Program-made: the position numbers and the translations under genes
Source: an uncultured Clostridia bacterium
Lineage (GTDB): Bacteria > Bacillota_A > Clostridia > Christensenellales > Aristaeellaceae
Direction: 5' to 3'
Length of the DNA stretch: 12,567 nucleotides
Assembly: GCA_946408865.1 (NCBI GenBank)
Contig: CAMJTZ010000044.1
Span: 1 to 12,567 of the forward strand
Part shown: positions 1,477 to 12,567 of the stretch, piece after piece
Layout: each line of letters opens with the position of its first letter
Numbering within the stretch: position 1 is the first letter of the stretch
The notes under the pieces: generated by a model
What the model saw: only the letters and a program-made list of their open reading frames with translations
Told to the model about the DNA's origin: nothing
Database searches by the model: none

Positions 1477-1923
1477 TTAGATGGTATACAGATCCCAGGC
1501 GCCGGAGATCCTTTCGCGGCATTCCTGAATCAGGTCCCAGAGCGTCCGGTTCCCGGCAAAATCCGTCAGAGAGCGGTTCAGGGGCTTCCACAGGCAGTCG
1601 TTCACCGCGCTGCGCAGGCTGCCCTCCTCCCCGTACTCCGCGGGATCCGTTTCCTCCAGGATGCTGTTGTCCAGGGCGTTAAGAATATCGGAGATCGTAA
1701 TCTTCTCCGCGGGGCGGGACAGCGTGTAGCCGCCCCGCAGCCCCTTCTGCGCCCGGATCAGGCCGGCCTGCCGGAGCTGCGTCAGAATCTGCTCCAGATA
1801 TTTCTGGGAGATGTTCTGTCTTTCTGCAATCTCCGGCGCGGAAACAATGGATCCGTTTTCCGAGTACAGCGCGATATCCGCCAGCGCCTGCACGCCGTAT
1901 TCCACTCTTGCCGAAACTCTCAT
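1477..1923 (-). CDS. Rrf2-family transcriptional regulator, CymR-like
   Basis: A 148-residue winged-helix DNA-binding protein. It starts with the family hallmark MRVSARVEYG. The helix-turn-helix spans about 28-55 (APEIAERQNIS, then KYLEQILTQL) and the wing contains KGLRGGYTLSRP (60-71). It has only two cysteines (C110, C135), not the three-Cys cluster of Fe-S Rrf2 sensors such as IscR and NsrR, which fits CymR, the cluster-free repressor of cysteine metabolism in Bacillus and Staphylococcus. The protein ends in DLYTI. CymR also ends in an aromatic-containing tail with a final Ile, and such tails dock in the active site of CysK; two CysK-fold proteins are encoded in this operon. Its ATG overlaps the preceding stop (ATGA), with GGAGG at 1931-1935, 7 nt upstream. 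It is the last gene of the operon and probably autoregulated through the operator at 11608-11633. The CymR-type role is inference; the family is firm. Confidence 0.9.
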   Translation of the reverse strand: MRVSARVEYGVQALADIALYSENGSIVSAPEIAERQNISQKYLEQILTQLRQAGLIRAQKGLRGGYTLSRPAEKITISDILNALDNSILEETDPAEYGEEGSLRSAVNDCLWKPLNRSLTDFAGNRTLWDLIQECRERISGAWDLYTI

Positions 1924-3101
1924 AGCACACCCTCCAGTCTTTCCAGCGCCTCCCGGAGAATACTCCGCGGGCAGGCGGCGTTGATCCGCTGAAATCCTTT
2001 GCCGGCGCTGCCGAAGATGGCGCCGCTGTCCAGCCAGAGCCGGGCCCTGTGAATGATCCGGTCGTCCAGCTCCGCCGCGGGGATCCCGGTCTCCCTGAAA
2101 TCCAGCCACAGCAGATAGGTTCCCTCCGGTCTGCGCATCCGCACCCCCGGCAGGCGTTCCTGCACAAAGCGGTCCGCAAAGCGGATATTGTCCCATACAT
2201 AGGCCTTCATGGCGTCATACCATTCGCCGCCGTGCGCGTACGCCGCCTGCGCCGCCGCGATGCCGAAAATCGTCGGCTCGTCATAGCCGGTGCGGGCAAT
2301 TTCCTCCGTAAAGGCGCGCCGCAGCTCCGGATTCGGGATAAAGATGTTGGACTGCTGCAGCCCGGCCAGGTTGAAGGTTTTGCTGGGGGCAGTTGCGGTC
2401 ACGGTAAACGCCCGGAAAGCCGGGTCCGTCTCCTGAAACACCTGATGCTTCACGCCCCAGGTGAAATCCGCGTGAATCTCGTCGCTGAAGACGGTCACGC
2501 CGCGGGCCGCGCAGATCCTGCCGATCTTCCGGAGCTCCTCCGCGGTCCAGACCCTTCCCACCGGGTTGTGCGGGCTGCAGAGGATAAACAGCTTCACGCC
2601 GTGCTCCTCCACTTTCTGCTCAAAGTCGTCAAAATCCATGCGGTCGTACCCTTCCGCGTCCCGGACCAGGTCCGAGCTGACGACGAGCCGGCCGTTGCGG
2701 CGGATCAGGCTGCTGAAGGGATAATACACCGGCTGCTGGATCATCACGGCGTCTCCCGGCCCGGTGAACGCGCGGATCGCCGCCGCCAGCGCGAAGCAGA
2801 CGCCGGGCGTTTTCACCAGCCATTCCGGCTCCACGTCCCACCCGTGGCGTTTTTTCATCCATCCGCTGACCGCTTCAAAGAAGCCGTCCCCGGGCAGGGT
2901 GTTGCTGTATCCGTAGATATTGTGCCGCGTGAGTTCCGCGAGCGCGTCCTCCACAAAGGAGGAGGTTTTGAAATCCATATCGGCCACCCACAGGGGCAGC
3001 ACGTCCTCCGGATAGCCCCGCTCCGCGGCAAAATCGTACTTCAGGCTCCGGGTGTTTTTCCGGTTCACGACCCGGTCAAAATCGAGATTTCTTTCCGTCA
3101 T
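1920..3101 (-). CDS. PatB/MalY-type pyridoxal phosphate C-S beta-lyase
   Basis: A 393-residue fold-type I PLP enzyme of the MalY/PatB branch. These are cystathionine beta-lyases that cleave C-S bonds of cystathionine, cystine or S-alkylcysteines to a thiol, pyruvate and ammonia. Branch markers are LPLWVADMDF (35-44) and NIYGYS (61-66). The PLP site is visible: N179 in SPHNPVG, D207 in SDEIH, the Schiff-base lysine K241 in APSKTFNLAG, and R372 in KGFQRINAA for the substrate carboxylate. Length is normal. The ATG overlaps the upstream stop codon (ATGA), with an SD-like CTCCTCC complement starting at 3109. Directly following a cystathionine gamma-synthase/lyase-type gene, it can complete cysteine-to-homocysteine transsulfuration, or release thiols from imported S-substituted cysteines. 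Older annotation may call it an aminotransferase class I/II. Confidence 0.92.
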   Translation of the reverse strand: MTERNLDFDRVVNRKNTRSLKYDFAAERGYPEDVLPLWVADMDFKTSSFVEDALAELTRHNIYGYSNTLPGDGFFEAVSGWMKKRHGWDVEPEWLVKTPGVCFALAAAIRAFTGPGDAVMIQQPVYYPFSSLIRRNGRLVVSSDLVRDAEGYDRMDFDDFEQKVEEHGVKLFILCSPHNPVGRVWTAEELRKIGRICAARGVTVFSDEIHADFTWGVKHQVFQETDPAFRAFTVTATAPSKTFNLAGLQQSNIFIPNPELRRAFTEEIARTGYDEPTIFGIAAAQAAYAHGGEWYDAMKAYVWDNIRFADRFVQERLPGVRMRRPEGTYLLWLDFRETGIPAAELDDRIIHRARLWLDSGAIFGSAGKGFQRINAACPRSILREALERLEGVL

Positions 3102-4225
3102 CCGTTTGCTCCTCCGTTTTCGGCAAGCGCCGCGTCAAAAGCCCGGGCAAGATCCGCGACGATATCCTCCGGGTTCTCGATGCCCACGGAAAGCCGCAGC
3201 AGTTTATCCGTAATGCCGAGCCGCTGCTTCTGCTCCTCCGGCACGTCCGGATGCGTCTGCACGGTGGGATAGGTCAGCAGGCTTTCCGTTCCGCCGAGGC
3301 TTTCCGCGAAGGTGATCAGCCGGATATTCTTCAGGATTCCCAGCGCCAGATCCCTGTCCCGCACGGTAAAGGAGATCATGCCGCTGCCGGCGTAATACAC
3401 CTGCTCCACCAGGGGACTTTCCATAAGCCACTCCCGCACCCGCAGGGCGTTGCTTTTGTGCCTTTCCATCCGCAGGGCCAGCGTTTTCAGCCCCCGCAGG
3501 CACAGCCAGCATTCAAAGGGCCCGAGGGTGGAGCCCACCGTTTTGGAAAGCAGCCGGAAGGTCTCCGCAATTTCCGGATCCCTGCAGCAGAGAAATCCGC
3601 AAACCGTGTCGTTATGCCCGCTGAGATACTTGGTTCCGGAATGCACCACGATATCCGCTCCCAGCGCGATGGGCTGCTGAAAATACGGCGTCATGAACGT
3701 ATTGTCCACGATCAGCAGCGCGCCGGCGCTGTGGGCGATTTCCGCGGCGGCGCGGATATCCGTCGTCCGCATCATCGGATTGGTGGGCGTCTCGAGATAA
3801 ACCGCCCGGGTTCCCGGGCGCACATGCTTTTTCAGCGCCTCCGGATCCGTCGTGTCCGCGTATTCGGTCCGGTATCCGTTCTTTTCGCTGATCCGCGCGA
3901 TCATCCGCACGACGCCGCCGTAAAGATCTTCCCCGAGAACGATGTGATCCCCGGGGCGGAAAAGTTCAAACAGCGTCGCGATCGCCGCCATGCCGGAAGC
4001 GAACGCGACCGTGTCATATGCGTTTTCAAGAGAACTGATTGTTTCCTCCAGATAGGCCCGGGTCGGATTGGACTCCCGGGAATAATCAAAGCCGTTGGGA
4101 TTGTGCCCCGGCGTCAGGTGGGAAAAGGAAGCGGTCTGGTAAATCGGATAGCTGATGGCGCAGTTCGGGTCGGGATTGCGGTGTCCTTCTCCGTGAATAC
4201 ATCGGGTGTCGATGGCGTATTCCAT
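3098..4225 (-). CDS. Cystathionine gamma-synthase/gamma-lyase family PLP enzyme
   Basis: A 375-residue Cys/Met-metabolism PLP enzyme. It has the adjacent-subunit phosphate-binding YSR (48-50), the cofactor loop SGMA (77-80), D174 of VDNTF, the Schiff-base lysine K199 in HSGTKYLSGHND, and the C-terminal AESLGGTESL (307-316) with its following TH. It could act as cystathionine gamma-synthase, O-acetylhomoserine sulfhydrylase or cystathionine gamma-lyase; sequence reading alone does not separate these. Oddity: after VYYAG (277-280) it runs straight into SGMISF, without the segment of about 15-17 residues (typically L..HP.H.....Q..GFG) found at this point in most members. The gap is in frame and not a frameshift. 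ATG is preceded by AAAGGAG (complement at 4235-4241), 9 nt away. Coupled by ATGA overlap to the PatB-like gene, so the two probably act in one transsulfuration step. Confidence 0.9.
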   Translation of the reverse strand: MEYAIDTRCIHGEGHRNPDPNCAISYPIYQTASFSHLTPGHNPNGFDYSRESNPTRAYLEETISSLENAYDTVAFASGMAAIATLFELFRPGDHIVLGEDLYGGVVRMIARISEKNGYRTEYADTTDPEALKKHVRPGTRAVYLETPTNPMMRTTDIRAAAEIAHSAGALLIVDNTFMTPYFQQPIALGADIVVHSGTKYLSGHNDTVCGFLCCRDPEIAETFRLLSKTVGSTLGPFECWLCLRGLKTLALRMERHKSNALRVREWLMESPLVEQVYYAGSGMISFTVRDRDLALGILKNIRLITFAESLGGTESLLTYPTVQTHPDVPEEQKQRLGITDKLLRLSVGIENPEDIVADLARAFDAALAENGGANG

Positions 4226-4255
4226 TCCGGTCGGCTCCTTTCTGTTCCAGTCTGT

Positions 4256-5245
4256 TCAGAACGTTTCACCGTCAAAGCGGTATCCCTTCGGCAGGATAAA
4301 TCCGGCAGCCGTCTCCGGCGGCATGTCCGGATGCGCCGGAAGCAGCAGCGCCGTCCGGTTCCGCCGGAAGCCCTCCCGGCTGTAAAAGCCGACGCCGCCC
4401 GGATGGGTGTTGAGAAAAAGGTTCTGGCCCTTCATCTGCGCCGCGAGCCGCGCGACGGTTTCCATGCCGATATGCAGTCCCTGGTATTCCGGGTCCACGG
4501 CAACGTTCAGAATCAGCCCCTGGGATACGCCGTCCGATTCGGCCCGGGCGCACCCGATCAGCTTTCCGCCGTCATAAGCATATTCGGTATACGGGCTGTT
4601 GTCAAAAGTTTTGCGGGTGACGGCCTCGTCCCGCGGGCGGCCGCCGAAGGCCAGGGACAGCAGTTCGTTCAGGCGGGCGTAATCGATCCCCCCGGTCCTG
4701 TCGGTATAGGAGATCGCGAGATGATCCCGGTTCAGGGCGCTTTTTTTACCCTTCGGAAAGTTTCCCGTCGGGGCGTTCCGCTCCCCCTCAAACCAGTAGC
4801 CCGCCGGCAGGAAAAACTCCTCCTCCGGCAGGCGGCGGTCGATGGCTTCCCCGCCCTGCCCGGCGTAGGTAAAGGAGTTCCGTGAGCGCCGGAAGCCGCG
4901 GGCCTCAAAAAACGGGACCGCCCGGGCGTAGGTATAGGTAAACACTTCCTGCCCCCGGACCTGCTCCAGGAGCCGCTCCAGCACGCCGCTGCCGATCCCC
5001 CGGCCTCTGTACTCCGGCAGCACCGCAACGTCCGTCACCAGCGCCCAGGCCTCCCGGTCGGACAGCACCCGCCCGGCCGCCGCGACCCGGTCCCCGTCCA
5101 GGGCGAAAACCGCGCAGGTACTGTTCTGAAAGGCCTTCCGGGTTTTTGCCTCCGTCCAGTCCGCCCGGACGGGCAGGGAGAAAGCCAGCACCTGCGCCGC
5201 CTGCGCGAAGTCGACATTTCCCGCGTCTGTATAGACAATGCTCAT
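4256..5245 (-). CDS. Tandem GNAT-fold N-acetyltransferase
   Basis: A 329-residue protein made of two homologous GNAT domains. Repeat 1 begins near residue 3 (IVYTD) and repeat 2 near residue 178 (ISYTD); later matching pairs are FQNS/FDNS, FRRSRNS/FRRNRTA, and LPAGYWFEGE (146-155) / LPKGYRFDGE (318-327). Acetyl-CoA binding motif A is intact in repeat 1 (LPEYRGRGIG, 76-85) and altered in repeat 2 (DPEYQGLHIG, 251-260, His in place of a Gly), so the first domain is the better candidate for catalysis. The acyl acceptor is unknown. Bacillus sulfur operons of the ytmI type carry a GNAT that N-acetylates S-substituted cysteines, and a similar job would fit here; this is inference. Start supported by AAAGGAG (complement 5254-5260), 8 nt upstream. 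Confidence 0.85.
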   Translation of the reverse strand: MSIVYTDAGNVDFAQAAQVLAFSLPVRADWTEAKTRKAFQNSTCAVFALDGDRVAAAGRVLSDREAWALVTDVAVLPEYRGRGIGSGVLERLLEQVRGQEVFTYTYARAVPFFEARGFRRSRNSFTYAGQGGEAIDRRLPEEEFFLPAGYWFEGERNAPTGNFPKGKKSALNRDHLAISYTDRTGGIDYARLNELLSLAFGGRPRDEAVTRKTFDNSPYTEYAYDGGKLIGCARAESDGVSQGLILNVAVDPEYQGLHIGMETVARLAAQMKGQNLFLNTHPGGVGFYSREGFRRNRTALLLPAHPDMPPETAAGFILPKGYRFDGETF

Positions 5246-5273
5246 TTCTTCCGCTCCTTTGCGCCCGCAGGCC

Positions 5274-6209
5274 TTACTGCTCCCACCGGATCAGCGATTT
5301 TTCCGCCCGGTTCACCAGGATATCGATCACGGTGGTGATCACGCCCACCGTGATTATACCAGCCAGAACGCAGCGGTAATCCGCAAAGCTCTTGTATTTC
5401 TCAATAAAATAGCCGATGCCCAGGTTCATGCCCAGCATTTCCGCGCCGGTCAGGCACATGAAGGCGCCCCGCAGGCTCCGGGAGATGCTCTTGATGATGC
5501 CCGGCAGGCAGTAGGGAAAGATCACGCGCACCAGCATGCCCGCCGTTCCCACGCCCATGGTTTTCGCCGCCTCGATCACCGCCCGGTCGATCTGAGAGAC
5601 CCGGGAAACCGTTCCCTGAAAGGTGGGCCAGAAAACCGCGAAGAAGATCACGGCGACGGCCGCCTCCCGGAAGGTGGCGAAAACCATAATCAGATAAGCG
5701 GAGAACATCAGCGGGGGGATCAGCGTGATCACGTTGGAGATGGGCAGCAGAACCTCCCGCACCCGCCGCACCCAGCCGGCCAGCAGCCCCAGCAGCGTGC
5801 CCAGCACGATGGCCAGCAGGAAGCCCCAGAACAGCAGCTGCAGAGAGCCCAGCACGTCCTTCCAGATTTCGTCCGGCTTCTCCACAAAGACGTGGAAGAG
5901 GCCTTCCGGCGACGGAATCAGCAGATCGTTGTGCACCGCGCCGGTTTTGTACGCCAGTTCCCAGATGGCGAAGAAGGCGAACAGCACGACGGCGATATCG
6001 GACGCGCTCTTCTTCCGGGTCACATGCACGCTCACCGCGTACAGCGCAAAGGCAATGACCAGCGTCACGATATACGCGTTGCTTTCGTAATACCGCTTAT
6101 GCTCCGTCAGGTATGGCATGAACAGGGTCAGCAGAACGTTCGCCGCGAACAGCACCGCCGCCGCTGCGAACTCCACGTACATTCTCCTGTCAAGTAAAAA
6201 TCGTTTCAA
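5274..6209 (-). CDS. ABC transporter permease, SsuC/TauC-like
   Basis: A 311-residue inner-membrane component of an importer of the sulfonate/nitrate/taurine group. The C-terminal part holds the BPD-permease core with the EAA loop that contacts the ATPase (EAAKTMGVG at 213-221, then IFPYCLPGI). Hydrophobic segments lie near 14-31, 46-62, 71-87, 124-144, 160-178, 183-198 and 280-297. Two or three of these are an N-terminal addition compared with the usual six-segment SsuC of about 260 residues. The start is read as TTG at 6207-6209: it has GGAGG (complement 6217-6221) exactly 7 nt upstream and overlaps the ATPase stop as TTGA. The first ATG, at 6180-6182, has AGGAG only 1 nt away, too close to work well. 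The substrate is not deducible; an organosulfur compound is suggested by context. Confidence 0.9.
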   Translation of the reverse strand: MKRFLLDRRMYVEFAAAAVLFAANVLLTLFMPYLTEHKRYYESNAYIVTLVIAFALYAVSVHVTRKKSASDIAVVLFAFFAIWELAYKTGAVHNDLLIPSPEGLFHVFVEKPDEIWKDVLGSLQLLFWGFLLAIVLGTLLGLLAGWVRRVREVLLPISNVITLIPPLMFSAYLIMVFATFREAAVAVIFFAVFWPTFQGTVSRVSQIDRAVIEAAKTMGVGTAGMLVRVIFPYCLPGIIKSISRSLRGAFMCLTGAEMLGMNLGIGYFIEKYKSFADYRCVLAGIITVGVITTVIDILVNRAEKSLIRWEQ

Positions 6210-7012
6210 AGCGCTGCCTCCGCGTCAATGTTTTCCTGCACCTGGGAATAGAAGCCGGCAATCAGCTTCCGGTGCAGCTCCTCATAGGCTGCCGTTCCGA
6301 TGAGATCGTCCCGCTTCCGCGGATGCGGCAGGCTGACCTCCACCTCCGTACGGATCCGCCCCGGCTCCATTACGATAATCCGGTCCGCCAGCAGAATGGC
6401 CTCGTCGATGTCGTGGGTCACGAACACCACCGTCTTCTTCCGGGTGGCGCACAGGCCGGAGACCATCTCCTGCAGCTCCAGCCGCAGCTTCGGGTCAATG
6501 GCGGCGAAGGGTTCGTCCAGCAGCAGCACGTCCGACTCCAGGGCCAGCGCCCGCGCCACGGCCACCCGCTGCTTCATGCCGCCGCTGAGCTGGCCGGGAT
6601 ACTTGTCCCGCGCCGCCAGCAGCTCCACGCTCCGGAGATATTCCTCCGCCTTTTTCGCCCGCTCCTTCCGGGTGTACTTCCGGCCGGACTGGCGGATGGC
6701 GAACATCACGTTTCCCCGGGCGGTGAGCCACGGAAACAGGGAGTACTGCTGAAAAACCACCGCCCGGTCCGGTCCCGGTCCGCGCACGGCCTTGCCGTCC
6801 AGCAGAATCTCGCCCTCCTTCGCGCGGTTCAGCCCGCTCAGAAGGCTCAGCAGCGTCGACTTTCCGCAGCCGGAAGAGCCCAGGATGCACAGAAACTCGC
6901 CGTCGCGGATATCCAGGCGGATCTTCTTCAGCGCTTCGAAGGAACTCTTTTTGTCCACGTAGTCAAAGCTCACGTCCCGTATGGAGATCTTGGGTGCAAC
7001 CGCTTCCGCCAT
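6206..7012 (-). CDS. ABC transporter ATP-binding protein, SsuB/TauB/NrtD-like
   Basis: A 268-residue cytoplasmic ATPase that energises the adjacent permease. All nucleotide-binding motifs are intact: Walker A GSSGCGKST (45-53), Q-loop Q89, signature LSGGMKQRVAVARAL (142-156), Walker B VLLLDEP (162-168) and switch His H200 in VTHDIDEA. The VTHDIDEAI-LADRI-VM pattern is typical of the nitrate/sulfonate/taurine importer ATPases. ATG at 7010-7012 has AAGGAG (complement 7019-7024) 6 nt upstream. Its last codons carry the ribosome binding site of the permease, so the two are translationally coupled. Confidence 0.95.
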   Translation of the reverse strand: MAEAVAPKISIRDVSFDYVDKKSSFEALKKIRLDIRDGEFLCILGSSGCGKSTLLSLLSGLNRAKEGEILLDGKAVRGPGPDRAVVFQQYSLFPWLTARGNVMFAIRQSGRKYTRKERAKKAEEYLRSVELLAARDKYPGQLSGGMKQRVAVARALALESDVLLLDEPFAAIDPKLRLELQEMVSGLCATRKKTVVFVTHDIDEAILLADRIIVMEPGRIRTEVEVSLPHPRKRDDLIGTAAYEELHRKLIAGFYSQVQENIDAEAAL

Positions 7013-7027
7013 AGCCGGCTCCTTCCG

Positions 7028-7954
<927 letters not shown>

Positions 7955-7981
7955 GTTGATCCTCTTTCAGATAAAAAACCA

Positions 7982-9193
7982 TCAGTCCCTGAGCTTCGAC
8001 GCGACGGGGTTGACGGACGCGTCCTGCGAAAGGGTGCGGACCATGGGATTCCGGTCCGCCTGCGCCGGCGCGTTCCACCTGGAAACGGAGATTTCGCTCT
8101 GGTAATCCGCCGCCGTTTCGCCCGCCGGATGCTTTTTGAACACGTGCTCCGGGTCCGCGGACAGGGATTTCCGCGATCCGTCCGCCGCCCACAGCGCGTC
8201 ATACGGCACCTGGGACGCGATCCGCTCCCGGTAGCTGGCGAAGATGCCCTTGGTGCTCTTCTCCGGGAACTCGAAGAAGGTATACTTGCGGAACACCGGC
8301 AGGCTGAACAGATCCTTCACATAGCCCCACAGGTTTTTGTATTCCGTGATCCGCTGCTTCATCGGCCCCACGTTGTGGTAATAGCTGGTTTCCCAGCGCA
8401 CCAGGGTCACGTACAGGCGGATATCGGAATCGGTGATGTAGTCGCCGAAGAGGAAACGGTTCGTTTCCAGCCGCTTGTCCAGCTTTTCCACCGAATCAAA
8501 GAAATCCTCATAGGCCTCGCTGTACGCCTCCCAGCTCTGGCAGAAGGCCATCCGGTAATGTCCGTTGTTCACCGTCGGGAAAAGCCAGTCGTTGAACTCG
8601 TCGATCTCCTTCCGGTATTTCACGGGATACAGGTCCGGCGCGTCTTCCGGCTGGAAAGGCCTGAACTGCACCTCAATGTAATTGGTCAGGCGGTGATAGT
8701 CGTTGTTGACCGCCTTCTTTTCCTTCACGTCCACCAGCGTCGGCGTGGTGGCGCGGCCGGTGAAGCCGGGCTTTGCCCGCTGATAGAACTCGCTGAGGAA
8801 ATGCGCCCCGCAGATCGGATCCCGGTATCCCGGCTGATCCGCGAATCCGTGGCCGTAGACGTTGGTCTCGCCGCTGTGGGTGGTGGCCGCGTCGCCGATC
8901 ACGTCCTGCAGTCCCAGCAGATCCCGCACGATCACCGGGCGGTTGGACCAGTGGCAGCCGTGGGCCCAGTAAATCGCGAACCGGTTCGCTTCCGCGCGCA
9001 GCTTTCCCTCTCCCTCGCCGAAAGGCTGGATAAAGGCGTTGGGCTGGCGGATAAACGCGCCCCGCCCGTCGATCTCGTTCCGTGTTTCCTGGGGTCTGGG
9101 CGGCACCCCCGCCTCCTTCGCGTAGGCTTCCGCCAGCGCGTCCGTATAGGCCTCCGCCGCGGCGGGCCTCCTGATCTCACATGCGTTTGCCAT
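7982..9193 (-). CDS. Xi-class glutathione S-transferase-like protein
   Basis: A 403-residue homologue of Xi-class GSTs (glutathionyl-hydroquinone reductases, E. coli YqjG type), which remove a thiol from S-conjugates through an active-site Cys. Evidence: a thioredoxin-fold start RFAIYWAHGCHWSNRPVIVR (71-90) with catalytic C80, the cis-proline region TTPTLVD (149-155), NDWLFPTVNNG (201-211), and the helical-domain signature FLFGDYITDSDIRLYVTLVRWE (247-268, read in two halves). The usual CPWA motif is CHWS here. About 70 residues at the C-terminus, from about 335, have no counterpart that I recognise in YqjG. Most Clostridia lack glutathione, so another thiol or a thioether is a likelier substrate. 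Set between two cysteine-synthase genes and behind an importer, it may free sulfur from the imported compound (inference). AGGAGG complement at 9203-9208 supports the start. Confidence 0.88.
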   Translation of the reverse strand: MANACEIRRPAAAEAYTDALAEAYAKEAGVPPRPQETRNEIDGRGAFIRQPNAFIQPFGEGEGKLRAEANRFAIYWAHGCHWSNRPVIVRDLLGLQDVIGDAATTHSGETNVYGHGFADQPGYRDPICGAHFLSEFYQRAKPGFTGRATTPTLVDVKEKKAVNNDYHRLTNYIEVQFRPFQPEDAPDLYPVKYRKEIDEFNDWLFPTVNNGHYRMAFCQSWEAYSEAYEDFFDSVEKLDKRLETNRFLFGDYITDSDIRLYVTLVRWETSYYHNVGPMKQRITEYKNLWGYVKDLFSLPVFRKYTFFEFPEKSTKGIFASYRERIASQVPYDALWAADGSRKSLSADPEHVFKKHPAGETAADYQSEISVSRWNAPAQADRNPMVRTLSQDASVNPVASKLRD

Positions 9194-9210
9194 GGTCCCG
9201 TTCCTCCTGT

Positions 9211-10137
9211 TCAGTCAAACAGATCGCTTGACAGGTATTTGTTTCCGCCGTCCGGAAAAATCACGGCGATATTCTTTCCGCGGTTCTCCTCCCGCCGGCC
9301 GATCTCCGCCGCGGCCCATAACGCCGCTCCGGCGGAGATGCCGATCAGCAGGCCTTCCGTTTTCGGGCAGAGCCGGGCGTATTTGTAGGCGTCCTCGTCG
9401 CTGCAGAGCAGAATCTCGTTATAGAGGGTAAGATCCGTTATGGGGCAGACGGCGCCGCCGCCGATGCCCTGGATCTTGTGCGGCCCGGGCGCTCCGCCGT
9501 TGAGGACGGGGCACCCGGCCGGCTCCACGCCGTAGATCTTCAGTTCCGGGTTCATTCTCCGCAGAAACCGTCCGGTGCCCAGCGACGTTCCGCTGGTGCC
9601 GACCGCCGCCACGAGAATGTCCACCTTCCCGTCCAGCGCCTCCCAGATTTCAGGCCCCGTATGGCGCTCATGGGCTTCCGGATTGTGCGGGTTTTCCCCC
9701 TGGGCGGGCCGGAAGGCGCCGGTCTTCTCCGCCAGCTCCGCGGCGGTGCTTCCGGCTTTGCCGAAACCTTCCTGCTTCGGGGTCAGCACCACTTCCGCGC
9801 CGTAAGCTTTCAGGATCCTGATTTTCTCGCTGCCCGCGCCTTCCTGCATGCAGATGGTCGCGCGGTATTTTTTGACCGCGGACACCAGCGCGACGCCGAT
9901 GCCGGTGTTGCCGCTGGTGCCTTCCACGATCCTGCCGCCCGGCTTCAGCTTTCCTTCCGCCTCCGCCGCCTCGATCATGTTCAGCGCGGCGCGGTCCTTG
10001 ACGCTTCCGCCCGGGTTGAGCCCTTCCACCTTGGCGTAGAGATGCGCCTTCAGCCCTTCCGCCTGTTCGATCCGGTTCAGATGCAGCATCGGCGTATGGC
10101 CGATCAGCTCCAGAACGTTCTCATAAATCTTTCCCAT
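9211..10137 (-). CDS. Divergent cysteine synthase paralogue (CysK/CBS fold-type II)
   Basis: A 308-residue protein with the fold and length of CysK. It keeps the PLP lysine K47 (NPGGSVKDR), the asparagine loop GTSGNTG (73-79) and QGIGGG (223-228), but differs at several active-site positions that are canonical in the paralogue encoded two genes downstream. These are: E-P before the loop becomes E-G; the phosphate loop is VGTSGT (179-184); QFTN becomes QGEN (146-149); and the serine that bonds the PLP ring nitrogen becomes Gly297 (PDGGNKYLS). It may use a different acyl-serine or nucleophile, catalyse a beta-elimination, or act as a regulatory partner of the CymR-like protein. ATG at 10135-10137 has AAAGGG 7 nt upstream. 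Automatic annotation will probably say cysteine synthase. Confidence 0.9.
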   Translation of the reverse strand: MGKIYENVLELIGHTPMLHLNRIEQAEGLKAHLYAKVEGLNPGGSVKDRAALNMIEAAEAEGKLKPGGRIVEGTSGNTGIGVALVSAVKKYRATICMQEGAGSEKIRILKAYGAEVVLTPKQEGFGKAGSTAAELAEKTGAFRPAQGENPHNPEAHERHTGPEIWEALDGKVDILVAAVGTSGTSLGTGRFLRRMNPELKIYGVEPAGCPVLNGGAPGPHKIQGIGGGAVCPITDLTLYNEILLCSDEDAYKYARLCPKTEGLLIGISAGAALWAAAEIGRREENRGKNIAVIFPDGGNKYLSSDLFD

Positions 10138-10165
10138 ACGGCTGCCCTTTCATCGCCCGCCCGTT

Positions 10166-11287
10166 TTATTTGTTGGCTTCGTTGAATTCCGCCTGAAGCG
10201 CCTGATAGAATGCGTTGTCGGGATTTGCTTCGATCAGTTCGCTCAGCGCGTTGCTGTAGACTCCCGTGTCGATGTTGCTGCGGATATCGTAGGTCGCGAA
10301 GTCGACGGACGCGCTCTTCAGCAGGCCGGAATTGTTGGCGGCCTCCACATACTTGACGATGCCGCTGGTGTTCGGATCCACCGCGTACTTGGTCACGCCG
10401 CCGTACAGGTAGGTTTCCACATAATCCGTTTCCTTGCCGGACCAGGCGGAAATGATGCTGATCACGTTCGCGCGGATCTCCGCGTCCGTTTCGCCGGCCT
10501 TGTAATACTCAAAGGCGCGGATTCTGGCCTTCTCATAGGCGACAAAAGCGTCCCGGCTGGCCTCCAGTCTGGCTTTGGAGGTCACTTCCCGGCAGCACAC
10601 GTAGTTATTCTGCAGCGCGCCCGCCGCGGTCACGGTCTCCAGTCCGTAGGCGTCGGCGTAGAGCAGCGCGTATTCCAGCGGCAGGAAGCCCAGCTCCACT
10701 TCGCCCTTCTGCACGGCCTGCGCCACCGCGGTTTCATCCGCGTAATAGAGGATGTTGCCGGAGGCTTCGTCCTCGATGGCCGCGATCTGTTCCGCCGTCA
10801 CCCCGTTGTCCAGCAGATACTGGCGGGTGATCACCCAGGCCGCCTCGTTCCGCTTGAAGCCCAGTTTCGCGTTCAGCACCGCGTCGATGTTGATGATTTT
10901 TCCGGCGTCCCGGAAGCCTTCTGCGTTTCCTTCCTTTGCGATGACGGCGCCGCCTTCCACGGCCGTTCCGCCGATCACCACCAGGTCATAGCCGTTTCCG
11001 ATGGCCTGCAGGTCCGGCACGAAACCGGTTCCCAGAATGTCCAGGTTGCCGTCGCCGTTGATGGCGGTCAGGGCGTCCATGCCGCCCAGGTTCACTTCCT
11101 GGACCGTTACGCCTTCCTCTTTGAAATAGCCCAGCTGCTGCGCCAGAATGTTGATTGCAATGCGGATATTGCCCGTCATAAAGGATACGTACAGCGTTCC
11201 GTGATCTCCCTCCGCCAGGCCGGAGCCGGTCAGCCCCGCCAGCAGGACGGCCAGTGTCAGAATGATTCCCAGTACTTTGCGTTTCAT
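10166..11287 (-). CDS. ABC transporter substrate-binding protein, NMT1/SsuA-like
   Basis: A 373-residue exported binding protein, first gene of the operon after the leader. It has a basic N-terminus (MKRKV), a hydrophobic stretch (5-20) and a likely signal peptidase I site after GLA (25/26). The mature part begins GTLYVSFMTGNIRIA, with LGYFKEEGV (52-60), NLDILGTG (81-88) and IGGTA (105-109), the pattern of NMT1/SsuA/TauA proteins that bind sulfonates, taurine, nitrate or pyrimidine precursors. No lipobox cysteine is present, which is unusual for a Gram-positive binding protein. A Cys pair (C231, C232) lies in the second lobe. The start was chosen at 11285-11287 because GGAGG (complement 11296-11300) is 8 nt upstream and the signal peptide begins there; the open frame runs on to 11431 but that part is leader RNA. 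Ligand unknown. Confidence 0.9.
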   Translation of the reverse strand: MKRKVLGIILTLAVLLAGLTGSGLAEGDHGTLYVSFMTGNIRIAINILAQQLGYFKEEGVTVQEVNLGGMDALTAINGDGNLDILGTGFVPDLQAIGNGYDLVVIGGTAVEGGAVIAKEGNAEGFRDAGKIINIDAVLNAKLGFKRNEAAWVITRQYLLDNGVTAEQIAAIEDEASGNILYYADETAVAQAVQKGEVELGFLPLEYALLYADAYGLETVTAAGALQNNYVCCREVTSKARLEASRDAFVAYEKARIRAFEYYKAGETDAEIRANVISIISAWSGKETDYVETYLYGGVTKYAVDPNTSGIVKYVEAANNSGLLKSASVDFATYDIRSNIDTGVYSNALSELIEANPDNAFYQALQAEFNEANK

Positions 11288-11376: not shown

Positions 11377-11407
11377 TCAAAAACCGGGGGCCGCTGAGAG
11401 CTCCCGG
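11377..11407 (-). terminator. Leader attenuator terminator
   Basis: On the minus strand CCGGGAGC (11400-11407) pairs with GCCCCCGG (11384-11391): five G-C/C-G pairs at the base, one A-C mismatch, two more G-C pairs, and an 8-nt loop. It is followed directly by TTTTT (11379-11383) and then GATT. It lies between the mini-ORF and the first structural gene. Its 5' arm also belongs to the antiterminator pairing, so the two structures exclude each other. Confidence 0.7.
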
Positions 11408-11511
11408 GCAAAATGGCGTCAGGCTGAACACACGCGCGTTATCCGCGCTGCTTCCTCTCCGGACGTACGGCAGGCAGGCCGAACGTCGTCGCCACGGAAC
11501 ATGCCCGGGAG
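11401..11511 (-). promoter_or_regulatory. Antiterminator pairing (two 10-nt arms)
   Basis: On the minus strand CTCCCGGGCA (11502-11511), inside codons 18-21 of the Cys mini-ORF, is perfectly complementary to TGCCCGGGAG (11401-11410) about 90 nt further on. After one mismatch two more pairs extend it. The second arm covers the 5' side of the terminator stem, so this pairing would prevent termination. The first arm begins about 12 nt after the Cys-Cys codons, so a ribosome waiting there should leave it just free, while a ribosome moving on would cover it. Confidence 0.65.
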
Positions 11512-11564
11512 ATCAACATTCGACAACACATCATGATCTGCTTTCCGCCGTTTTTCCTGAACAT
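11439..11564 (-). CDS. Cysteine-containing leader peptide (attenuation uORF)
   Basis: A 41-codon ORF starting at ATG 11562-11564 and ending with TAA at 11439-11441. It has the strongest ribosome binding site of the region (AGGAGG, 8 nt upstream) and begins about 25 nt after the predicted transcript start. The peptide has a basic, unremarkable start, then MMCCRMLISRACSVA (11-25), with cysteines at 13, 14 and 22, all TGT, although the genes sampled here mostly use TGC. It has no signal peptide or domain. The codons just after the Cys pair form one arm of the antiterminator. The probable role is cis-acting: ribosome progress through the Cys codons reports charged tRNA-Cys supply. Polycysteine leader ORFs with this role are known in mycobacteria; this one is predicted only. 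Confidence 0.75.
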   Translation of the reverse strand: MFRKNGGKQIMMCCRMLISRACSVATTFGLPAVRPERKQRG

Positions 11565-11596
11565 GCTCCGCACCTCCTTCCGGATGAATTGTGTGC

Positions 11597-11625
11597 AATA
11601 TATCACCATTAGCCTACTATGTCAA
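11597..11625 (-). promoter_or_regulatory. Sigma-70-type promoter of the sulfur operon
   Basis: On the minus strand a consensus -35 TTGACA (complement 11620-11625), a 17-nt spacer and a near-consensus -10 TATATT (complement 11597-11602) are present. The transcript should start near 11589-11590, just upstream of the leader ORF. It lies about 70 nt past the stop of the WYL-regulator gene and is the only strong promoter I see for the ten structural genes downstream. Confidence 0.85.
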
Positions 11626-11633
11626 TAGGTAAT
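11608..11633 (-). promoter_or_regulatory. Probable Rrf2/CymR operator over the -35 box
   Basis: An imperfect inverted repeat reads on the minus strand ATTA-CCTA, nine bases, TAGG-C-TAAT. The -35 hexamer lies inside the nine-base centre and its edge, so a bound dimer would block RNA polymerase. CCTA...TAGG half-sites around a -35 fit the size expected for Rrf2-family dimers. The likely binder is the CymR-like protein encoded at the end of the same operon. Binding is inferred. Confidence 0.55.
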
Positions 11634-11684: not shown

Positions 11685-12567
11685 CTATATGCCGTACAGG
11701 GCGTTCGCTTTGCGGATCTCCTCCCGGATTTCCTCCACGAGGGACTCCGGGGAGATCACCCGGATGATGTTCGCGTGCTCTGTCGCCCAGTGCTTCATGG
11801 CCATGGCGCTGACCTTCAGGCGGCAGGAAACGGTGCCGTCGTCCTTTTCGTGGAAAGTGACGTGCTTTCCGAAGAAGTCGATGATCAGGGAAACATATTT
11901 TTTGTCGGTGACGAATTCCGTATCCTTCGCCTCGTCGGTGAACATGTTGAGGTTCTGATAAACGTAATCCTGGAGGTTCAGGCCGTTTTCGAGGCCTTCG
12001 ACCTGCGACTTCGGCTTCACCGGGGTCTCCAGCAGCTCGATCTCCGTAATCCGGTCGATCCGGTAGTTGGAAACGTTGGTGTGGTGGTCGTTGTTGCAGA
12101 TCAGGTAATATCTTCCTTCGCTGGCGACCATCTGATAGGGGTTCAGGGTCTGGCGCCGGACGGAGCCGTCCGCGTTCAGGGTCGGATGCAGTTCGAGGTC
12201 CGTGCCGTACTGGTTGTACGTGATCCGGATCTGCTTCCCCGTGGCGATGGCTTCGTCGAGGATGTCGATGGTGTGGAACAGCTCCGCGTTCTGCGGGGAA
12301 TCCGCGGACATGCAGTGCATGTGGTTCATCCGCTGGTTGAAGTAGACGCTGGACAGCTTTCCGAGCTTGTCGATCAGCTGCCTGCGCTGTTTGTAGGGAA
12401 CGGAGCGGGAGAACAGCAGGCCGTCGATGATCATATGCAGTTCCGCTTCGGTAAAGTCGTGCTCATAGTACAGATCGGTGTAGATCGTGTTTTCTTCCTT
12501 CTCGCCGGTCTTTTTGTTGATATGGCTGCGGTTCACCTCGGTGAACTGGATATCGTACCCGGCGTCG
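11685..12567 (-). CDS. WYL-domain transcriptional regulator (5' end outside window)
   Basis: A partial gene: the reading frame stays open to the window edge, and 294 codons plus the stop (TAG, 11685-11687) are visible. The missing N-terminus should hold a winged-helix domain. The visible part has the inter-domain region (FTEAELHMIIDGLLFS, then LIDKLGKLSSVYF), then the WYL core: QIRITYNQYGTDLELHP, LNPYQMVASEGRYYLICNND and NYRIDRITEIELL, followed by the WYL C-terminal extension. WYL proteins sense small ligands or nucleic acids and control nearby or distant genes. The gene has the same direction as the sulfur operon and ends about 50 nt before the operator, but I see no terminator between them. 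Its targets are unknown; a role in the sulfur operon is only possible. A GTG at 12534-12536 is an internal codon and not a supported start. Confidence 0.9.
   Translation of the reverse strand, partial: DAGYDIQFTEVNRSHINKKTGEKEENTIYTDLYYEHDFTEAELHMIIDGLLFSRSVPYKQRRQLIDKLGKLSSVYFNQRMNHMHCMSADSPQNAELFHTIDILDEAIATGKQIRITYNQYGTDLELHPTLNADGSVRRQTLNPYQMVASEGRYYLICNNDHHTNVSNYRIDRITEIELLETPVKPKSQVEGLENGLNLQDYVYQNLNMFTDEAKDTEFVTDKKYVSLIIDFFGKHVTFHEKDDGTVSCRLKVSAMAMKHWATEHANIIRVISPESLVEEIREEIRKANALYGI

What the first reader, a model, noticed from the sequence alone, without database searches (positions are those of the whole stretch)
11439..11564. Leader ORF with Cys-Cys codons upstream of a cysteine/organosulfur operon
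A 41-codon ORF, too short for ordinary gene calling, has the best ribosome binding site in the region and sits at the 5' end of the transcript. It carries Cys codons at 13, 14 and 22 (all TGT, in a region that mostly uses TGC). The genes downstream import and assimilate sulfur into cysteine. A leader peptide rich in the pathway's end product is the hallmark of ribosome-mediated attenuation. Cysteine-sensing leader ORFs are described in actinobacteria; I do not know of one described for a Clostridia-type SsuABC/CysK operon.
Basis: partly seen in the sequence, partly recalled or inferred. Interest (0 to 1): 0.88.

Follow-up and report, generated by a model that had tools for sequence, protein, structure and literature searches.

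The report
Cysteine-sensing attenuator before clostridial sulfur genes
A tiny cysteine-rich reading frame in front of a sulfur operon looks like the sensor of an on/off RNA switch, and very similar switches sit in front of cysteine, methionine and amino-acid uptake genes in other Clostridia.

Summary
The 41-codon ORF is real (near-consensus promoter, AAGGAGGTG ribosome site, Cys codons 13, 14, 22). It is one copy of a recurring element: I collected 72 instances, 71 with a strong ribosome site and in-frame start, mostly before genes for cysteine/homocysteine synthesis or amino-acid, methionine or organosulfur import. A scan for two exact RNA arms alone, not the Cys codon, found 55 places in 49 of 308 family genomes; 52 are Cys leaders.

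CTCCCGGGCA, 14 nt after the start of Cys codon 14, pairs with TGCCCGGGAG about 90 nt on, the 5' strand of a terminator; six of six G-to-A changes in one arm are matched in the other. Reading: low Cys-tRNA stalls the ribosome, the antiterminator forms, the operon is read; otherwise transcription stops. The hairpin that should hide the first arm when cysteine is plentiful is only weakly supported.

Correction: Cys14 is the conserved codon; codon 13 is Cys in 43 of 72. Four of nine related operons lack the leader. Rfam and ten literature searches showed nothing like it in Clostridia. No experiment was possible. Recurrent Met codons leave dual Cys/Met sensing open.

The parts
11597..11625 (-). sigma-70-type promoter TTGACA-17-TATATT
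   Evidence: like promoter in 69 of 72 instances, spacer 17 nt in 68 and 18 nt in 1
11613..11629 (-). operator-like palindrome CCTATTGACATAGTAGG over the -35 box; probable Rrf2/CymR-type site (inferred)
   Evidence: exact in 40, one mismatch in 21, two in 7, three in 2, absent in 2 of 72; reversed control never better than 4 mismatches; also in L007, which has no leader
11571..11579 (-). Shine-Dalgarno AAGGAGGTG of the leader
   Evidence: 71 of 72 instances have a strong site followed by an in-frame open start
11439..11564 (-). leader peptide ORF, 41 aa, Cys at 13, 14, 22
   Evidence: homologues P0121-P0123 and 71 other instances
11523..11525 (-). regulatory Cys codon 14 (TGT)
   Evidence: Cys in 71 of 72; TGT at this place in 51 of 55 places found without asking for it
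11526..11528 (-). Cys codon 13 (TGT), accessory
   Evidence: Cys in 43 of 72
11516..11524 (-). region 1: GUCGAAUGU, proposed 5' strand of the protector hairpin; would lie under a ribosome stalled at Cys14
   Evidence: 9 of 9 pairs in the window; alignment-wide support weak
11478..11486 (-). proposed 3' strand of the protector hairpin, ACGUUCGGC
   Evidence: fold
11502..11511 (-). region 2 (arm A), CTCCCGGGCA, 5' strand of the antiterminator
11401..11410 (-). region 3 (arm B), TGCCCGGGAG, 3' strand of the antiterminator, overlapping the 5' strand of the terminator
11379..11407 (-). intrinsic terminator CCGGGAGCTCTCAGCGGCCCCCGG then TTTTT (read by eye and by alignment; the simple terminator scan did not list it)
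10166..11287 (-). substrate-binding protein, SsuA/NMT1-like (weak)
9211..10137 (-). cysteine synthase-like (CysK1; TIGR01139 336 bits, just below its cut-off of 351)
7982..9193 (-). GST-like protein (GST_C_2)
7028..7954 (-). cysteine synthase A (CysK2; TIGR01139 432 bits, above cut-off)
5274..7012 (-). ABC ATPase (6206-7012) and permease (5274-6209), Ntr/Ssu/Tau type; below the NCBIfam cut-offs
4256..5245 (-). two-domain GNAT acetyltransferase
3098..4225 (-). Cys/Met metabolism PLP enzyme (cystathionine synthase/lyase family)
1920..3101 (-). PatB-type C-S lyase
1477..1923 (-). Rrf2-family regulator, candidate ligand of the promoter palindrome

Best explanation
This is a ribosome-mediated transcription attenuator that reads charged tRNA-Cys. 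SHOWN by sequence: promoter, ribosome site, ORF, Cys codons, an antiterminator and an intrinsic terminator that share a strand, and a U-tract. INFERRED: when Cys-tRNA is short, the ribosome stalls with codon 14 in the A site and covers about 12 nt downstream, up to arm A, which begins 14 nt from the first base of that codon. Arm A stays free and pairs with arm B, arm B is lost to the terminator, and the operon is transcribed. When Cys-tRNA is plentiful the ribosome runs on about 27 codons to the stop; arm A then becomes hidden, most likely in a protector hairpin (GUCGAAUGU with ACGUUCGGC) that refolds behind the ribosome, and arm B forms the terminator. The protector is the weakest step. The same element stands before a set of operons (O-acetylhomoserine/serine sulfhydrylase, amino-acid and methionine ABC importers, cysteine synthase, this operon) in one family and in further members of the order and class, behind a promoter that probably also carries an Rrf2/CymR-type operator.
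For: (1) 72 instances; in 71 the strong ribosome site has an in-frame open start, in none an out-of-frame one. (2) Search by two exact RNA arms alone in 308 genomes of the family: 55 places in 49 genomes, 52 with the Cys leader; the backward pattern gave none. (3) Antiterminator with its extension helix: 91.5% of cells paired against 86.4% in shuffles (0 of 500 as high), 75 double changes against 26.8, at most 48.6% paired when slid. CTCCCGGACA always with TGTCCGGGAG (6 of 6); arm A ending in G faces C in 4 of 5 and makes G-U in the fifth; arm A ending in T faces A in 1 of 2. (4) Cys at the key codon 71 of 72, at -1 43, at +8 40, at +16 31, at +18 25; Cys is 192 of 2076 codons outside the core, 1.1% in the window genes. 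(5) TGT is 108 of 139 of those accessory Cys codons but 10 of 59 Cys codons in 67 first downstream genes. (6) Downstream genes: see regulon in the full report. (7) Two unrelated Cys-rich leaders, in L003 and L008, stand before related operons with terminators of their own; in L008 the antiterminator strand starts 13 nt from a Cys codon. (8) Masking the RNA up to +13 from the Cys codon raises the mean unpaired probability of arm A, before arm B exists, from 0.354 to 0.540, in 68 of 72; with the ribosome at the stop it is 0.333.
Against: Nothing is measured. Point (8) is not specific: when the 28 bases before arm A are shuffled, arm A is hidden about as well (0.367 against 0.354; native lower in 44 of 72), and opening grows gradually with the mask. 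The protector's 5' strand hardly varies, so covariation does not support it: register 1 has 79.7% paired against 79.6% shuffled (174 of 500 as high), though at most 46.8% when slid; register 2 56.3% against 56.5%. Only 53 of 72 fit one of the registers well (at least 8 of 9, or 7 of 8, pairs). The terminator count is modest: 77.6% against 76.3%, and the version slid by -1 has a higher covariation score, 0.124 against 0.103. Equilibrium energies favour the terminator state without a ribosome in only 17 of 66 instances, the window not among them; masking shifts toward the antiterminator in 50 of 66. In L003 and L008 the best fold is the antiterminator with or without a stalled ribosome. The pair counts are helped by how instances were found: arm A (or near it) was required and arm B chosen as the best match; the rows are related (55 groups at 80% identity). 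The extension helix is poor in the window (2 of 7). L009 has a single Cys. Four of nine related operons lack the leader.
Confidence: 0.82

Rival explanations
1. The leader reads methionine as well as cysteine: stalls at the Met codons at -3, -2 or -1 also keep arm A available, so the switch integrates both sulfur amino acids.
For: Met at codon -2 in 47 of 72, at -1 in 11, at -3 in 12, and at +2 in all 72, against 2.1% Met in the window genes; codons -3 to -1 lie outside the proposed helices; some downstream operons are methionine importers or make homocysteine.
Against: Met at +2 is part of the CGAATG core used to find the instances, and a stall there would reach into arm A; a stall at -2 would leave half of the proposed protector strand free. 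Met may be kept for stalling context.
Confidence: 0.28
2. The conserved peptide (MCCRMLISRAC) is an arrest peptide that stalls in the exit tunnel on binding a metabolite, rather than a charge sensor.
For: CRM..SRA is almost invariant, and part of it (CGAATG) is not yet fully explained by pairing.
Against: S, R and A fall in arm A and are explained by RNA pairing; residues before Cys vary and the distance from start to Cys is 5 to 15 codons; the preference for TGT points to the codon.
Confidence: 0.08
3. The operon is controlled only at initiation by the Rrf2 regulator; the ORF is a bystander.
For: The promoter palindrome is conserved and L007 has it without a leader; an Rrf2 gene ends the operon.
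Against: Does not explain covarying arms, terminator, ribosome site or Cys codons. The two layers can coexist.
Confidence: 0.04
4. The ORF encodes a working small protein (for instance metal or thiol binding).
For: Cys-rich, translated-looking ORF.
Against: N- and C-terminal parts vary in sequence and length; the strongest conservation follows the RNA arms at the nucleotide level.
Confidence: 0.02

Closest known systems
uORFC-8-2 motif (Rhodobacterales, upstream of cysS; PMC8632094, passages read)
   Same: uORF with tandem Cys codons usually at 14 and 15, two stems, terminal U run, proposed stalling at Cys codons
   Different: Found exclusively before cysS in alphaproteobacteria, UGC dominates; here UGU, other genes, several operons, Clostridia; I did not align the two motifs
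Cys leader ORFs of Actinobacteria (PMC1262725, passages read; Canestrari et al. 2020 seen only as a reference, full text not held)
   Same: Cys-rich short ORF before cysteine genes
   Different: Runs of Cys near the stop and no conserved terminator (PMC1262725); the mycobacterial ones are called leaderless in that reference's title and translational in a citing paper (PMC13236596, passages read)
Cysteine T-box of Clostridium (PMC2940859, passages read)
   Same: Senses tRNA-Cys charging and acts by premature termination on cysK, cysP and other genes
   Different: Uses a specifier codon and T-box sequence instead of a translated ORF; no Rfam T-box was found in the window or in six other loci
trp/his-type attenuators (recalled); a His leader in bacilli (PMC2965389, passages read)
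   Same: Leader ORF, antiterminator and terminator sharing a strand
   Different: Here the ORF runs about 27 codons past the control codon, so an unstalled ribosome leaves arm A behind it instead of sitting on it

Membership tests
Ribosome-mediated transcription attenuator | Translatable leader ORF at the 5' end of the transcript | tested here: met
   sequence features only
Ribosome-mediated transcription attenuator | Codons for the regulated amino acid at the control site | tested here: met
Ribosome-mediated transcription attenuator | Antiterminator exclusive with an intrinsic terminator | tested here: met
   terminator support weaker
Ribosome-mediated transcription attenuator | Protector (1:2) structure | tested here: inconclusive
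   53 of 72 fit a register and slid versions fit worse, but no covariation and no clear excess over shuffled strands
Ribosome-mediated transcription attenuator | Genes of the same amino acid's pathway downstream | tested here: met
   substrates of the importers not known
Ribosome-mediated transcription attenuator | Read-through rises when the amino acid or its charged tRNA is scarce | not testable with these tools
   needs an experiment
T-box (cysteine) | T-box sequence and specifier stem | tested here: not met
   no Rfam match
SAM riboswitch (S-box) | Rfam SAM aptamer | tested here: not met
uORFC-8-2 | Upstream of cysS in Rhodobacterales | tested here: not met
   other first genes, Clostridia records
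uORFC-8-2 | Sequence and structure of the motif | not tested
   no alignment of that motif was at hand
Actinobacterial Cys leaders | Cys run near the stop, no conserved terminator | tested here: not met
   key Cys codon about 27 codons before the stop in the window, terminator strand mostly 18-38 nt after the stop

The most novel reading that the evidence does not exclude
An undescribed RNA/peptide regulatory family: one attenuator reused across the sulfur regulon of many Clostridia, whose MCCRM core reads both sulfur amino acids (Met at -2, Cys at -1 and 0) and is tuned to charging through the disfavoured codon UGU, layered on an Rrf2-type operator at nearly every promoter.
Probability: 0.3. 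Interest if true: 0.76.

Novelty: new variant of a known kind. Interest (0 to 1): 0.65.

Why it matters
Clostridia are known for sensing cysteine with T-boxes (PMC2940859, passages) and, in relatives, repressors. A translated attenuator reused across a regulon would be another solution, in gut and rumen bacteria whose sulfur use matters to the host. It also explains many unannotated small ORFs, and its 72 aligned copies are a good data set for testing attenuator design: fixed spacing from control codon to antiterminator, and choice of the rarer codon.

Tried and rejected
Rfam at gathering and relaxed thresholds: nothing credible (the one relaxed hit, a lncRNA family at E 0.65, is chance). Pfam and NCBIfam on the leader: none. 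SsuA relatives in the family of G001 (1 of 200), the family of G003 (2 of 397) and the genus of G005 (3 of 45) gave few operons, so I searched for the leader instead. Equilibrium folding as a test of the switch: mixed. Tandem Cys-Cys as the key feature: rejected (43 of 72). An RNA-only reading: rejected because ribosome site and frame are kept. Set aside as chance after reading: L120, L121, L127; G658, G676, G700 in the arms search (not fetched). L084 has no readable downstream gene; for L041, L096 and L098 the script chose a wrong frame over the permease (the permease start is visible for L041, for the other two it is inferred from their relative L094). Six of 72 were left out because the script found no CCGG 3' strand.

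Full report
OBSERVATION. It has a strong ribosome site and lies behind a near-consensus promoter. The window genes use TGT 4 times and TGC 40 times. An ORF with like features arose in 2 of 5000 exact dinucleotide shuffles of this stretch. The operon behind it runs from 11287 to 1477: substrate-binding protein, CysK, GST-like, CysK, ABC ATPase and permease, GNAT, cystathionine-type enzyme, PatB C-S lyase, Rrf2 regulator. The 'Ssu' label is a superfamily-level guess: the binding protein scores 20 bits against a cut-off of 163.5.

ORTHOLOGUES. A protein search with the leader gave three hits: P0121, which holds the same 41 residues, and P0122 and P0123, which keep MMCCRMLISRACSVA. The genome-contig scan, which used two short peptide patterns, gave nine related operons, L001-L009. 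Three, from one genus, carry the homologous leader: WCRMLISRAC (L001), QCRMRISRAC (L005), YCRMLISRAW (L009). There an M20 peptidase gene stands between leader and binding-protein gene. Two (L003, L008) carry unrelated Cys-rich leaders, with GCCCC and CMMC...CCPC, each followed by an intrinsic-terminator-like hairpin. In four (L002, L004, L006, L007) the upstream stretches I scanned hold no such leader, and the covariance model finds nothing in those genomes at E 1. Gene content is largely shared, with rearrangements.

A FAMILY OF ELEMENTS. The core TGTCGAATGNTGATCTCCCGGGCATG, with up to 3 mismatches, hits 29 of 45 genomes of the genus; the backward control hits none. A looser core hits 52 of 308 genomes of the family, control none. 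Pooled with loci in hand this made 72 distinct instances, window included; they are related: grouping at 80% identity leaves 55. The fairest test is: only two exact RNA arms were asked for. It gave 55 places in 49 of 308 genomes; by comparing coordinates, 52 of the 55 are Cys leaders, 51 with TGT and one (L039) with CGT preceded by a Cys codon. The other three (G658, G676, G700) look unrelated.

SPREAD. A covariance model of the element hit 6 of 248 genomes of the order; four of these are not among the family's 308. Of the four, L116-L118 read as clear leaders, and L119 (E = 8e-5) has its Cys one codon earlier. A class-wide scan of 216 genomes with up to 2 mismatches hit 10, control none; on reading, seven are the element (G005, G1072, G1047, G1020, G994, G1066, G1058, although in G1066, L126, the script found no second arm) and three are chance. 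The genome of L008 holds a separate copy before a MetY-like gene (L129).

RNA ANATOMY. Arm A (CTCCCGGGCA) starts 14 nt after the first base of the Cys codon; arm B (TGCCCGGGAG) is the 5' strand of a terminator followed by U's. 66 of 72 have all ten A:B pairs, G-U allowed. On alignment A3, A:B plus an extension helix: 91.5% of cells paired against 86.4% after shuffling (0 of 500 as high), 75 double changes against 26.8, at most 48.6% when slid. The extension helix covaries (GC 35, AU 14, GU 14 at one pair) but is weak in the window. All six CTCCCGGACA face TGTCCGGGAG; arm A ending in G faces C in 4 of 5 and U in L024; ending in T it faces A in L106 and not in L107. Two biases help these counts: the instances were found by arm A or near it, and arm B was taken as the best match within about 300 nt. 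The terminator has 77.6% paired cells against 76.3% (4 of 500); slid by -1 its covariation score is higher (0.124 against 0.103).

PROTECTOR. In folds of the leader before arm B is made, GUCGAAUGC pairs with GCGUUCGGC in one group (at least 8 of 9 pairs in 35 of 72) and AUGCUGAU with GUCGGCAU in another (at least 7 of 8 in 18); 19 fit neither well. Slid versions of the first register pair in at most 46.8% of cells against 79.7%, but neither register exceeds its shuffles, as expected of a strand that hardly varies and was part of the search. TGTCGAATG itself is not an artefact of the search: it recurs in the arms-only scan.

MECHANISM. A ribosome stalled at codon 14 covers about 12 further nucleotides (recalled value) and ends just before arm A. 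Masking that stretch raises the mean unpaired probability of arm A, before arm B exists, from 0.354 to 0.540, in 68 of 72 (window 0.36 to 0.62); with the ribosome at the stop it is 0.333. A control weakens this: with the 28 bases before arm A shuffled, arm A is hidden nearly as well (0.367; native lower in 44 of 72), and accessibility rises gradually with the mask. The stop lies mostly 18-38 nt before arm B (two at 4 and 6), so a ribosome that does not stall has moved well past arm A. At equilibrium the terminator is favoured without a ribosome in 17 of 66 (not in the window), the antiterminator with a stalled one in 61 of 66, and the shift is toward the antiterminator in 50 of 66. L003 and L008 fold as antiterminators in both states. 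I read the switch as kinetic; that is inference.

CODONS. Cys is at codon 0 in 71, at -1 in 43, at +8 in 40, at +16 in 31 and at +18 in 25 of 72; Met is at -2 in 47. TGT makes up 108 of 139 Cys codons at -1, +8, +16 and +18, but 10 of 59 in 67 first downstream genes. At -1 and beyond the core the arms do not explain this; it suggests selection for the disfavoured Cys codon.

REGULON. First downstream genes of 72 instances, grouped by BLAST: MetY-like O-acetylhomoserine/serine sulfhydrylase 38 (one a stub at a contig end); amino-acid ABC permease 14, plus 3 where the script read a wrong frame; amino-acid binding protein 4; MetN-like 3; MetQ-like 3; M20 peptidase leading the Ssu-like operon 3; CysK 2 (one behind a MetY fragment); the window's binding protein 1; none readable 1. 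Names come from representatives: MetY and CysK pass their cut-offs, the permease passes only the general polar-amino-acid permease domain (HEQRo_perm_3TM), the peptidase passes PepT-like, MetN and MetQ do not pass; the importers' substrates are unknown.

SECOND LAYER. A promoter with a 17 or 18 nt spacer is found in 69 of 72, and CCTATTGACATAGTAGG is exact in 40 and within two mismatches in 68 of 72; the reversed control never comes nearer than 4. It looks like an Rrf2/CymR-type operator; an Rrf2 gene closes the window's operon. This is inference from position and symmetry.

NOVELTY. Cys-coded leaders are in print for Actinobacteria (PMC1262725, passages) and proposed for cysS in Rhodobacterales (PMC8632094, passages); Clostridium is described with Cys T-boxes (PMC2940859, passages); a survey of attenuators reports His leaders in bacilli and knew of none shown outside Proteobacteria and Actinobacteria before (PMC2965389, passages). 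Ten full-text searches of the held library (66 was on CymR) listed no paper whose title, abstract start or read passage describes a Cys attenuator in Clostridia; subscription papers are mostly not held, and I opened only five papers. So: a new variant of a known kind, used at several operons.

Noticed in passing
L003 1846-1917 and L008 9393-9485: Unrelated Cys-rich leader ORFs with their own terminators and complementary strands before related operons: possible convergent evolution of Cys attenuators.
   Followed up: partly
window 11613-11629: Palindrome CCTATTGACATAGTAGG over the -35 box, within two mismatches in 68 of 72 promoters and present in L007 without a leader; probable Rrf2/CymR-type operator.
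   Followed up: partly
window 1477-11287: Operon content (two CysK, GNAT, PatB C-S lyase, GST-like; M20 peptidase added in L001, L005, L009) recalls salvage of S-substituted cysteines rather than plain sulfonate use (recalled comparison).
   Followed up: no
L021 1773-2669; second genes of L026 and L066: MetQ/NlpA-like protein in L021 whose C-terminal half comes first and N-terminal half second: looks circularly permuted; the second genes of L026 and L066 begin alike.
   Followed up: no
window 7982-9193: GST-fold protein with no NCBIfam match at E 0.001, with a relative in all nine related operons.
   Followed up: no
alignment A3, columns 7-10: CGAA after the Cys codon stays almost invariant even in the group whose proposed protector uses the other register; not explained.
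   Followed up: partly
L119 and L039: Variants in which the Cys codon stands one codon further upstream while the RNA strands stay.
   Followed up: partly
window 11685-12566: Upstream neighbour is a WYL/WCX-domain protein, incomplete at the window edge.
   Followed up: no
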